The position numbers were made by a program, and so were the translations under genes. The notes beneath the pieces are model-generated. The model worked only from the letters and a program-made list of their open reading frames with translations. It was not told the DNA's origin and did no database searches. A stretch of DNA of 36,894 bases. Origin: a virus. The DNA is taken from positions 1-36,894 of IMG/VR virus record IMGVR_UViG_3300015261_000166; one strand, given 5' to 3'. Below, in pieces: positions 26,266 through 29,467 of this stretch (its first letter is position 1; each line of letters begins with the position of its first letter).

Positions 26266-27255
26266 TTATCTAAATAGCTCTTGCACTTTCCCGGTTGCAG
26301 CATAATCAGCAAGTCCCTTAAGTCGCCGATAGTAGGCTAGCATAATCTTCACGGCCCCAAGTGGATCGGCGCTCGCCAGATCAAGAATATCATTCGAGCG
26401 ACTAGCCAAACCAAGAACCGAACAAAGCTTCTCTAACTTAACGGTCAAGTCTTTATTATCCTGAGTAGTTAAACGCAAATCTGCCTGTGCCTTACTAAGC
26501 CAAGTTTTATCGCGCAACCACTTATACACTTCATCGTAAATTATCGTGGCAGGTGAGTCAGCCTTATTTATCTCATCAACTATTTTCCCGATAGAGCTTG
26601 CAACCGATTTATTCATTCCAAATTCGATAACACCTGGGGACGCATACTGTATCCGACGAATCTCGACTCTATCTGCACTTGGTATTTTCAAGTATAAATC
26701 ATCGAAAAAATTAACAGAACTAAAGCCACCGCGCCATGGATAGCGTTGAAATAAGCTACCTATCCGTTGCCTTACTGACGAAGTTCCCTTTCCCGATAAC
26801 GCGTACATAATTGCATAACTATCCTGCACCAAATCCGAGAATTTTCGCATATCTTCGATGCCCCAACGACCGTCAATATGCACTGCATTGATATTATTAT
26901 CTTTGTTTATAGATATCGGTTTCTCGACAGGAATAAACATACCGGGTTTTGGTAAAATTCTCTCATCAACACTATCTTTAGATTGAGTCTTTACTGCATT
27001 ACCCACCTCACCCCAAAATTCTGCAAACTCAAACTTCCCTTGTGCTCTATGTGTAATCAGATAACGCACATCGACTTTTGCCTGAGACAATTTCTCTAAA
27101 TCGTCTTCCTTTACCCTGGCAAAGTAAAAAAGATACGAATCCTCTCCATCCTCATAATTAACGCCAATGTAATGTCTTTTACGCCCATCAATTGCAATAA
27201 CAACAAGAGGGACCTCGTATGCCAATAAAACCTTAGAAACTGTTAGATTTGCCAT
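26266..27255 (-). CDS. Unknown protein, second gene of MITE-flanked operon (DUF6575-like N-terminus)
   Basis: 329 residues. Residues about 5-75 (VLLAYEVPLVVIAIDG, YLFYFARVKEDDLEKLSQAKVDVRYLIT) resemble the DUF6575 family pattern as I remember it; confidence in that name is low. A middle domain (about 125-225) and a helical C-terminus (about 225-329, DLRLTTQDNKDLTVKLEKLC then MLAYYRRLKGLADYA) follow. No catalytic motif was recognised. Start overlaps the stop of the 128-residue gene (TAATG), so the two are translationally coupled. AT-rich codons mark it as foreign to the phage backbone. Confidence 0.7.
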   Translation of the reverse strand: MANLTVSKVLLAYEVPLVVIAIDGRKRHYIGVNYEDGEDSYLFYFARVKEDDLEKLSQAKVDVRYLITHRAQGKFEFAEFWGEVGNAVKTQSKDSVDERILPKPGMFIPVEKPISINKDNNINAVHIDGRWGIEDMRKFSDLVQDSYAIMYALSGKGTSSVRQRIGSLFQRYPWRGGFSSVNFFDDLYLKIPSADRVEIRRIQYASPGVIEFGMNKSVASSIGKIVDEINKADSPATIIYDEVYKWLRDKTWLSKAQADLRLTTQDNKDLTVKLEKLCSVLGLASRSNDILDLASADPLGAVKIMLAYYRRLKGLADYAATGKVQELFR

Positions 27256-27641
27256 TAAAGTTTCGCCGCTTGACCGACCACAACATTTAACGGATCGCTG
27301 GCTTTATAAGGCCACCAATGAACATGGGTTGGTTTATCCTTGTGCCAAACTCCCGTAGTAGGATCATGCAAAACCTGAACAGCATGGGTAAATTTTGGCA
27401 TACGCGGTGATTTCACTAATGCGCGACATACTTCAAGAGACGTGGTAAGCGATACTGAACGAGCACCACACTGATCATAAAAATTCCTAGTTGGCTGTTT
27501 CTTATATTGCGAATCAAAATCATCATCTTTTACCGTATTGGAAAATAACAATCGCCACAGAATCGGCTCATCAGGGACATTAGGATCTATTGGCGGACAA
27601 CTAGTAGGCAGGGATTCTCTATAGGTCATTTTTTTAATCAT
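27255..27641 (-). CDS. Unknown small protein, first gene of MITE-flanked operon
   Basis: 128 residues from ATG 27641 (ATG 27629 is an alternative); neither has a strong ribosome site. Visible features are a proline-rich start (PTSCPPIDPNVPDEPILWRLLFSN) and conserved-looking polar segments (QPTRNFYDQCGARSVSLTTSLEVC; then FTHAVQVLHDP and HVHWWPYKASDPLNVV). It is not recognised. The order small protein then larger partner, with one-base coupling, is reminiscent of two-component toxin-antitoxin or defence modules, but that is inference. The promoter must lie in the 280-bp AT-rich gap up to 27924, where no gene is convincing. Confidence 0.7.
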   Translation of the reverse strand: MIKKMTYRESLPTSCPPIDPNVPDEPILWRLLFSNTVKDDDFDSQYKKQPTRNFYDQCGARSVSLTTSLEVCRALVKSPRMPKFTHAVQVLHDPTTGVWHKDKPTHVHWWPYKASDPLNVVVGQAAKL

Positions 27642-28121: not shown

Positions 28122-28976
28122 TCAGCTTTCCGCAATTCGTTTTATAAAATCAGACTCCGAAATAACATCAATCCCCATCGATTCTGCTTTGCTCAGTTGC
28201 ACGCTCCCAGCGAGCGGGCCAGCGATCAAAACATCCAGGGAAACGCTAAACCCTCCGCGTACCTGCCAACCGGCCGCCCTCGCCATTGACTCCAATCCAC
28301 AGCGCTTAGTATCACGAAAACCTACAAAATATGCCGCAGTCTGCCACTGCTTTTGATTGGCCCTGCCCACTGGGTAGACATTGATGCCTACTGGACGATG
28401 GGAGGCCCCATCAGTAACGATTCTGTTGTTGGGAAGGAGGCGCATCGCACTCGCCCACTTCCCGAGACGTTGAACCTCTCCTGTCCTGAGCGAAGTCACC
28501 TTGCCACGAATACGCCGCAAAGAAAAAGTTCGTTTTCCTTGCCTTGCATGGCAATAACCTTCCAGATAATCCGCATCAACTGCCCACACTGAGACTTGCC
28601 GAGTTACATAGCCCAAACCGTCTCGCATCGGATACGAAAATTGAATTTCGTCGACATCTCCTGCTTCGCCTCGTGGCCCTCTCTTCGACTTTCTCTTTGC
28701 GCGTGATAGAACTTGAACAGGTTGCACCTCAACTGCGACTTGCTTGAGTTGTGGAATATTCTCACTCGCCGAAGGAACTTTTGGCGGAGCTGCAATTCGC
28801 TCGGTTAGACATGGAGGCTTTCTCACCTTTACGTTTGATATGCATAGTTGAATATGTCGCCAAAGCGAGGCACCCGGCTCGCCAGCGTCAATCGCTCGCT
28901 TCCGAGGATTCCAGCTGCTGAAAATTATGCAGAGCAAACAAGCAGCAATTACAATAAGCATAAGAAGGTGAATCAT
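28122..28976 (-). CDS. Membrane-anchored WYL-BRCT protein
   Basis: 284 residues from ATG 28976. One N-terminal membrane segment (about residues 3-21, LLMLIVIAACLLCIIF) is followed by a basic linker (RAKRKSKRGPRG, about 92-103). A WYL-like domain lies at about 110-180 (IQFSYPMRDGLGYVTRQVSVW, YLEGYCHARQGKRTFSLRRI), then a BRCT domain at about 214-284 (YFVGFRDTKRCGLESMARAAGW, LIAGPLAGSVQLSKAESMGI). WYL domains sense nucleotides or nucleic-acid ligands and BRCT domains bind phosphopeptides or DNA ends. The gene starts 7 bp behind the repressor stop, so it is probably expressed in the lysogen. Function unknown; DNA-damage sensing or defence is inference. Confidence 0.8.
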   Translation of the reverse strand: MIHLLMLIVIAACLLCIIFSSWNPRKRAIDAGEPGASLWRHIQLCISNVKVRKPPCLTERIAAPPKVPSASENIPQLKQVAVEVQPVQVLSRAKRKSKRGPRGEAGDVDEIQFSYPMRDGLGYVTRQVSVWAVDADYLEGYCHARQGKRTFSLRRIRGKVTSLRTGEVQRLGKWASAMRLLPNNRIVTDGASHRPVGINVYPVGRANQKQWQTAAYFVGFRDTKRCGLESMARAAGWQVRGGFSVSLDVLIAGPLAGSVQLSKAESMGIDVISESDFIKRIAES

Positions 28977-28983
28977 TTGCAGA

Positions 28984-29427
28984 CTATTTTTCCTTTTTTC
29001 GTCCGCTGCCGGCCACATTAAAAGTCTGTGGCCCAATGATATTCCCCACGAAATTTTGCCCAATCTTGCCGTGGGTTTCAACGTGTGGTGCATTCCCTGC
29101 TTGGAATGCCGGGGGTGCTGGCGAGCGCATGCCGCTAATCATGCCAAGTACTCCTGCCTTCCCGCGAACGTCCATACTTCGATAGCCAGTCAATAGTTCA
29201 TGCTCGTCCGCAGGCAACGCAGACAGCGCATGTTCTCCTGTCAGCAAATACAACACATCTACTCCAGCCGCAGCAACGGCCGCCAAATAGTCAGAATCTG
29301 GCGTACGGGAGCCGTTTTCATAGTTGAACTGGGCTCCCTTTTTTACCCCACCAAGGGCAGCAAACTCGTCCTGATTGAGGCCGAGGCGCTTCCGTTCTTC
29401 CTTGAGACGATCAAAAAAATACTTCAT
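28984..29427 (-). CDS. Phage repressor, XRE-type helix-turn-helix
   Basis: 147 residues from ATG 29427; GTG 29454 would add nine. The N-terminal helix-turn-helix (FFDRLKEERKRLGLNQDEFAALGGVKKGAQFNYENGSRTPDSDYLAAVAAAGVDVLYLLTG, in pieces across residues 4-67) is XRE/CI-like. The C-terminal part (VGNIIGPQTFNVAGSGRKKEK) is glycine-rich and lacks a LexA-type Ser-Lys protease, so induction by RecA self-cleavage is unlikely. Divergent from the early genes across a palindromic operator, it is the probable lysogeny switch. Confidence 0.88.
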   Translation of the reverse strand: MKYFFDRLKEERKRLGLNQDEFAALGGVKKGAQFNYENGSRTPDSDYLAAVAAAGVDVLYLLTGEHALSALPADEHELLTGYRSMDVRGKAGVLGMISGMRSPAPPAFQAGNAPHVETHGKIGQNFVGNIIGPQTFNVAGSGRKKEK

Positions 29428-29449
29428 TTGAGTACAAATACCTTTCCAA

Positions 29450-29467
29450 ATCACTCAAATGAGTGAT
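29450..29467. promoter_or_regulatory. Operator palindrome between repressor and early genes
   Basis: ATCACTCA-AA-TGAGTGAT is a perfect inverted repeat with a 2-bp centre, placed 23 bp upstream of the repressor start and 41 bp upstream of the first early gene. A related TTGAGTACAA motif at 29429-29438 may be a second weaker site. Both are likely targets of the repressor. Confidence 0.75.

What the first reader, a model, noticed from the sequence alone, without database searches (positions are those of the whole stretch)
28122..28976. Membrane-anchored WYL-BRCT protein behind the phage repressor
Seen: one N-terminal hydrophobic segment, a basic linker, a WYL-like block and a BRCT-like block, starting 7 bp after the repressor gene. 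Known: WYL domains sense ligands and control defence genes; BRCT domains bind phosphopeptides or DNA ends. Combination with a membrane anchor in a lysogeny operon is unusual. Inference: it may couple DNA damage or invading DNA to the lysogen state or protect the lysogen.
Basis: partly seen in the sequence, partly recalled or inferred. Interest (0 to 1): 0.7.

Follow-up and report, generated by a model that had tools for sequence, protein, structure and literature searches.

The report
Membrane-anchored WYL-BRCT prophage gene
Directly behind its repressor, a P2-like prophage carries a gene for a membrane-tethered protein with two DNA-binding-type domains, in a slot that related phages fill with other envelope or anti-phage genes, so it most likely helps the prophage keep other phages out of its host cell.

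Summary
The gene lies on the minus strand (28976-28122, 284 aa), 7 bp behind the repressor (29454-28984). AlphaFold and Foldseek support an N-terminal hydrophobic helix (residues 2-30), a disordered basic linker, a WYL barrel (about 108-172; PafBC- and BrxR-like) and a BRCT domain (about 212-284; RFC1/LigA-like). The protein belongs to a phage family in which WYL is constant, transmembrane segments vary (0-4) and BRCT is optional. In 29 of 38 loci examined (several near-identical) it directly follows a phage repressor, and those repressors belong to several classes. In phages with a similar repressor it is only one of many alternative cargos. The others include PtuA, CBASS 4TM effector and bSEFIR-like genes and, in this window, PD-T4-10 downstream. 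Genes directly behind related repressors are strongly enriched for membrane or secreted proteins. Five of six PafB residues needed for single-stranded DNA binding are conserved, but the BRCT phosphate-pocket Thr and Lys are lost in this clade. Best reading: a prophage-expressed, membrane-tethered nucleic-acid-binding exclusion/defence protein (about 0.5). Damage-to-lysogeny coupling is not supported. WYL-BRCT fusions were already noted in 2014; the anchored, repressor-adjacent family is a new variant. No function was tested.

The parts
28122..28976 (-). membrane-anchored WYL-BRCT protein gene, 284 aa (28976 start to 28122 stop)
28887..28973 (-). N-terminal hydrophobic helix, residues 2-30, overlapping NPRKR (predicted C-terminus in cytoplasm by the positive-inside rule; inference)
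   Evidence: kept in L001, L002, L003/L004, L026, L028
28662..28829 (-). disordered basic linker, residues 50-105
   Evidence: pLDDT < 50
28461..28655 (-). WYL (Sm-like barrel) domain, about residues 108-172; R126, Y137, R145, R149, R155 correspond to PafB R181, Y196, R204, R208, R214
28125..28343 (-). BRCT domain, about residues 212-284; pocket Thr and Lys replaced by V218 and Q260
28984..29454 (-). phage repressor (HTH_3), 156 aa, directly upstream
26266..27255 (-). cargo behind the WYL-BRCT gene: PD-T4-10 B-like defence protein
   Evidence: PADLOC 3.4e-43
27255..27641 (-). 128-aa gene overlapping PD-T4-10_B by one base, possible A partner (inference from position; no family hit)

Best explanation
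An accessory exclusion/defence gene of a P2-like prophage. It sits in the variable slot directly behind the repressor and is probably made from the repressor transcript in the lysogen (inferred from the 7-bp spacing on the same strand). The protein is tethered by one N-terminal helix to the inner membrane with WYL and BRCT facing the cytoplasm (inferred). The WYL domain binds single-stranded or other nucleic acid through a conserved Arg/Tyr set known to bind ssDNA in PafB (residues shown, binding inferred). With no HTH, nuclease or other catalytic domain it must act by binding: it likely captures or blocks DNA of a superinfecting phage at or just after membrane passage, or keeps it from circularising or replicating (inferred). 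The BRCT domain is an accessory second grip; in this clade it has lost the canonical phosphate pocket and probably binds DNA backbone or a partner instead (inferred).
For: Fold and domains. WYL ssDNA residues conserved (PafB mutagenesis in PMC11804915). Slot nature: in relatives the same slot carries PtuA in place of WYL-BRCT, or a CBASS 4TM effector, PD-T4-10 or PDC-S67 behind it, and bSEFIR, NsnA/GmrSD-like, PD-T4-6-like kinase, PDC-S49 or TIR-like genes. Genes directly behind related repressors, WYL excluded, are membrane or secreted far more often than other ORFs there: 13/17 against 42/165 (Fisher p 5e-5) and 10/13 against 88/268 (p 2e-3), including signal-peptide proteins with an SNase-like motif and lipoprotein-like ones. 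29 of 38 loci have the gene directly behind a repressor, and repressor classes differ, so it need not work through one repressor type. Precedents: defence hotspot between cI and integrase of K139-like P2 phages (PMC9122126); SieA, an inner-membrane protein blocking DNA injection (PMC10883804). Purifying selection on both domains.
Against: No function, expression or localisation was tested. The window's own BRCT pocket has lost Thr and Lys and the PafB R211 equivalent is Ser152. Relatives without transmembrane segments exist (PV94, Cartapus, L017, L021, L227), so the membrane is not essential to the family. The envelope-enrichment control includes spurious ORFs and rests on a crude hydropathy test. 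PADLOC gives only generic WYL matches and a partial BRCT-level match (PDC-S48, 8.7e-6).
Confidence: 0.5

Rival explanations
1. Lysogeny or induction modulator: the WYL domain senses ssDNA made by DNA damage or replication, and the protein then sequesters, destabilises or frees the repressor, giving an induction route where the repressor has no S24 peptidase domain.
For: Usually close to a repressor; WYL domains sense ssDNA in PafBC and DriD (PMC11804915); in L014 and L030 an HTH-less copy of the repressor C-terminal region follows the WYL-BRCT gene; the window's repressor has no S24 hit.
Against: Family also follows S24-type CI repressors (3 of 25); the WYL-BRCT allele does not track the repressor allele (L028 has the window's repressor but L026-like WYL-BRCT); 26 of 31 viral contigs with a related repressor lack it and one is cut off, so it is not a fixed part of the switch.
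Confidence: 0.2
2. Signal-responsive abortive defence: WYL binds a nucleotide or RNA signal made during infection and the protein triggers or regulates an effector, here perhaps the PD-T4-10 pair behind it.
For: WYL domains are predicted ligand sensors in defence loci (PMC4012209); PD-T4-10_B lies in the next cluster downstream; PADLOC WYL models match 26 of 29 members.
Against: No HTH or effector domain in the protein; downstream cargo differs in the relatives, PtuA or the 819-aa gene stand without an intact copy (L015, L003), and many members have integrase or late genes next.
Confidence: 0.15
3. Replication or repair helper for the phage's own DNA, as the database label 'DNA ligase' for phrog_2561 suggests, with no role in exclusion.
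For: All 29 members match phrog_2561, annotated DNA ligase; BRCT is LigA/RFC1-like.
Against: No adenylation, OB, zinc or HhH domain is matched; the LigA match is only to BRCT (positions 606-663); many members lack BRCT; the gene sits behind the repressor, not with replication genes.
Confidence: 0.07

Closest known systems
WYL-domain regulators PafBC, DriD, BrxR/CapW
   Same: WYL Sm-like barrel with the conserved Arg/Tyr groove (PafBC and BrxR tested, the others by name only)
   Different: no HTH; membrane-anchored and joined to BRCT
WYL-BRCT and WYL-TerB fusions listed by Makarova et al. 2014 (PMC4012209)
   Same: WYL joined to BRCT in one protein
   Different: the passages read give no membrane anchor, no repressor-adjacent phage setting and no WYL-only anchored relatives
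PHROG 2561 ('DNA ligase')
   Same: the window protein and all 28 aligned relatives match it
   Different: the functional label does not fit these proteins: no ligase domains
P22 SieA and other prophage inner-membrane exclusion proteins (PMC10883804)
   Same: prophage-encoded inner-membrane protein (here predicted)
   Different: no sequence relation claimed; works-like comparison only
Defence hotspot between cI and integrase of K139-like P2 phages (PMC9122126)
   Same: slot behind the repressor in a P2-type phage, variable defence content
   Different: different phage group; here the slot lies between repressor and late gene D, and WYL proteins are not mentioned in that paper's main text
Lambda RexA-RexB (from general knowledge)
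   Same: works-like comparison only: lysogen-expressed DNA sensor plus membrane part behind the repressor
   Different: two proteins with an ion channel; here the TM part varies from 0 to 4 segments, which argues for a tether and not a pore

Membership tests
WYL domain (PF13280) | sequence profile above curated score | tested here: inconclusive
   window protein 19.3 bits against cut-off 21.8; 26 of 29 members match at E <= 0.01
WYL domain (PF13280) | Sm-like barrel fold similar to solved WYL domains | tested here: met
   AlphaFold strands 109-170 at pLDDT about 91-95; Foldseek PafBC 4.7e-4, BrxR 9e-3, probability 1.00
WYL domain (PF13280) | conserved basic/aromatic ligand groove | tested here: met
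   R126, Y137, R145, R149, R155 match PafB R181, Y196, R204, R208, R214; R211 is S152 (PMC11804915)
WYL transcription factors | N-terminal HTH DNA-binding domain | tested here: not met
   N-terminus is a hydrophobic helix and disordered linker; no HTH hit
BRCT domain (PF00533) | fold and sequence profile | tested here: met
   VIA Z 11.5, rmsd 1.9 over 74 residues; Foldseek RFC1 1.7e-4; Pfam 20.8 bits against 21.3, just short
BRCT phosphate-binding class (RFC1/LigA/BRCA1 type) | Ser/Thr-Gly in the first loop and Lys at the start of helix 2 | tested here: not met
   V218-G219 and Q260 in the window; V or A and Q in all 5 of its clade; T and K in all 9 other BRCT members
NAD-dependent DNA ligase | adenylation, OB, zinc-finger, HhH domains | tested here: not met
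   only the BRCT segment of LigA is matched
prophage superinfection-exclusion protein | blocks infection of a lysogen | not testable with these tools
   needs plating assays
prophage superinfection-exclusion protein | expressed in the lysogen, membrane or envelope located | tested here: inconclusive
   repressor-adjacent same-strand position and predicted TM helix; expression and location not measured
known PADLOC defence systems | match to a named single-system model | tested here: not met
   only generic WYL, RTasWYL and PDC-S48 partial hits

The most novel reading that the evidence does not exclude
A family of membrane-tethered WYL proteins (with or without BRCT) is a distinct class of prophage exclusion factor in which a single-stranded-DNA-sensing domain, freed from transcription control, acts directly on incoming phage DNA at the inner membrane, in a dedicated envelope-protein slot directly behind the repressor.
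Probability: 0.3. Interest if true: 0.75.

Novelty: new variant of a known kind. Interest (0 to 1): 0.5.

Why it matters
It would extend WYL domains from transcription factors and helicases to stand-alone membrane-tethered DNA binders. It would also correct a misleading 'DNA ligase' label, and it points to the position directly behind P2-type repressors as a place where envelope-acting exclusion genes can be found systematically and tested.

Tried and rejected
Direct tblastn with the window protein against phage and plasmid records found nothing; a divergent relative (P0004) was needed. 'DNA ligase' reading rejected (only BRCT). Channel or pore effector judged unlikely: TM number runs from 0 to 4 with no shared sequence. 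Pseudogene rejected: dN/dS well below 1 and intact frames, although truncated remnants exist in L003/L004, L015 and L084. Damage-to-lysogeny switch rejected as main reading (see rival 1). A class-wide genome scan with the profile mostly returned long frames matched only at the BRCT part, probably LigA, and was of little use. PADLOC PDC-S48 has no paper in the library. The VIA list contained only BRCT matches, so it does not test the WYL part; Foldseek does. Promoter and terminator pattern matches were at about chance level. The K139 glo precedent rests on a secondary paper that calls it a periplasmic protein and immunity gene (PMC4870250); the primary 1999 paper was not read. The NMR paper on the RFC p140 BRCT-DNA complex is not held.

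Full report
WHAT IS THERE. The gene is on the minus strand, 28976 to 28122, 284 codons, intact; the plus strand is not open. It begins 7 bp after the stop of a 156-aa HTH_3 repressor (29454-28984), with AAGGA before its ATG. The window is a virus record of 36,894 bases with a P2-type gene set: portal, terminase, scaffold, sheath, tape measure, baseplate hub D, Ogr-like activator, replication nickase and integrase. Known phage records share only about 70% identity over the sheath region. The closest relatives of the gene are in IMG/VR contigs, and its N-terminal part recurs in a Duganella genome.

DOMAINS. Pfam sees BRCT (216-278) and WYL (135-157) just below its curated cut-offs. phrog_2561, labelled DNA ligase, covers 126-279 at 3e-15. 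AlphaFold with 22 aligned sequences gives a confident N-terminal helix (2-30), a disordered linker, a WYL barrel (109-170) and a BRCT fold (213-283). Foldseek finds RFC1 and DnlJ BRCT domains and PafBC/BrxR WYL domains; VIA gives BRCT Z up to 11.5 with rmsd 1.9 over 74 residues. A profile of the family reaches RFC1 BRCT at 5e-9 and PafBC at 2e-5 among PDB sequences, and a WYL-only profile reaches PafBC at 4e-8. The short N-terminus and NPRKR at the end of the hydrophobic stretch suggest a cytoplasmic C-terminal part (inference from the positive-inside rule).

KEY RESIDUES. In mycobacterial PafB, R181, Y196, R204, R208, R211 and R214 were mutated, singly or in sets, with loss of ssDNA binding (PMC11804915). 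By alignment these are R126, Y137, R145, R149, S152 and R155 here, so five of six are kept. Across 29 members the R126, R149 and R155 equivalents are nearly invariant. In the BRCT domain, the phosphate-binding Thr (FTG) and Lys (NAGPSK) are present in all nine members outside the window's clade and replaced by Val/Ala and Gln in all five within it. RFC1's BRCT prefers 5'-phosphate DNA ends (PMC9293009) and phospho-binding BRCTs use Ser/Thr-Gly and Lys (PMC10386641), so canonical end or phosphopeptide binding is doubtful for this protein. The gene is under purifying selection (dN/dS 0.23-0.38 overall; WYL 0.13-0.28).

THE FAMILY. Searching with an alignment of divergent members and with annotated phages shows a modular family. 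Forms are: TM+WYL+BRCT (window, L001, L002, L014, L026, L028-L030, L033, L043); TM+WYL without BRCT (L031, L032, L034-L042, L044, L045, L047, L050-L053, Yersinia phage 201.16); WYL+BRCT without TM (Vibrio PV94, Escherichia Cartapus and 500465-1, L017, L021, L227, L236, L285); BRCT before a WYL-like block (Enterobacter pENTAS02); and, by eye, three TMs, a coiled coil, a TerB-like part and WYL (L295). The number and sequence of TM segments vary, so the TM part is better read as a tether than as a channel. All 29 aligned members match phrog_2561, whose 'DNA ligase' label reflects only the BRCT similarity.

POSITION. In 29 of 38 loci examined (several near-identical) the gene directly follows a phage repressor; in five more a repressor or repressor fragment lies a short distance or one or two small genes away. 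Upstream genes match HTH_3 (18 of 25), Phage_CI_repr (8) and S24 peptidase (3) models, families that overlap. Enterobacterial copies often precede the integrase. The gene is an insertion and not a fixed part: of 80 loci with a repressor related to that of Yersinia phage 201.16, 76 lack it and most run straight into the integrase. In the window's own repressor group 4 of 31 viral contigs carry it, and truncated anchors remain in others.

THE SLOT. Cargo behind or in place of it includes PtuA (L015), a CBASS 4TM effector (L028), PDC-S67 (L002) and PD-T4-10 (window), and bSEFIR, NsnA-like, PD-T4-6-like kinase, PDC-S49 and TIR-like genes behind related repressors. Genes directly behind the repressor (within 150 bp), WYL excluded, are membrane or secreted in 13 of 17 and 10 of 13 distinct cases, against 42 of 165 and 88 of 268 control ORFs. 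They include lipoprotein-like proteins and signal-peptide proteins with an SNase-like motif (recognised by eye). This fits an exclusion slot. Rousset et al. described a defence hotspot between cI and integrase in K139-like P2 phages (PMC9122126), and K139's glo, a periplasmic protein, is called an immunity gene (PMC4870250).

MECHANISM. Shown: architecture, conserved WYL groove, position, selection, cargo exchange. Inferred: expression in the lysogen, inner-membrane location, nucleic-acid binding, and action against incoming phage DNA. With no HTH or catalytic domain, action by binding is the simplest reading. The repressor-modulator reading is weakened because WYL-BRCT alleles do not track repressor alleles (L028 shares the window's repressor but has an L026-like WYL-BRCT), because the family follows different repressor classes, and because most related phages lack it.

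NOVELTY. WYL-BRCT fusions were listed in 2014 (PMC4012209). Literature searches for WYL with BRCT returned only that paper. The membrane-anchored, repressor-adjacent family appears undescribed in the searched library, which is not the whole literature. I rate it a new variant of a known kind.

Noticed in passing
window 26266-27641 (-): PD-T4-10 B-like defence protein (PADLOC 3.4e-43) with an overlapping 128-aa upstream gene, about 480 bp behind the WYL-BRCT gene.
   Followed up: partly
L097, L100, L101, L105-L108, L110; repressor tails of L084-L113: Oxalobacteraceae-type repressors often end in a motif like GxVGQxVxGDIxxPQTFN, and a gene just behind often encodes a protein of about 225 aa with one TM whose N-terminus carries a similar motif; it might link repressor and membrane protein. 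Unexplained.
   Followed up: no
L014 1118-1420 (-), L030 6492-6866 (+): HTH-less copies of the repressor C-terminal region encoded just behind the WYL-BRCT gene.
   Followed up: no
L263, L264, L269, L272, L275 (behind the repressor): Signal-peptide proteins with an SNase-like motif (DGDTLTLL...IRLAEIDTPE) in the slot otherwise used by TM-WYL genes; candidate periplasmic exclusion nucleases.
   Followed up: partly
L295 4474-5652 (+); L067 1051-1785 (+): Further WYL architectures: three TMs, coiled coil, TerB-like part, WYL directly behind a repressor; and a WYL protein with a SWIM-like N-terminus. TerB and SWIM recognised by eye only.
   Followed up: no
phrog_2561: Labelled 'DNA ligase' but the phage proteins that match it here are WYL(-BRCT) proteins with no ligase domains.
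   Followed up: yes
L023 3352-4864 (+), Enterobacter plasmid pENTAS02: BRCT followed by a WYL-like block in swapped order, behind a separate gene for a protein with a C-terminal TM, between repressor and integrase.
   Followed up: partly
L003 8339-10798 (+): 819-aa SEC-C protein that stands in place of the WYL-BRCT part behind a kept anchor remnant.
   Followed up: no
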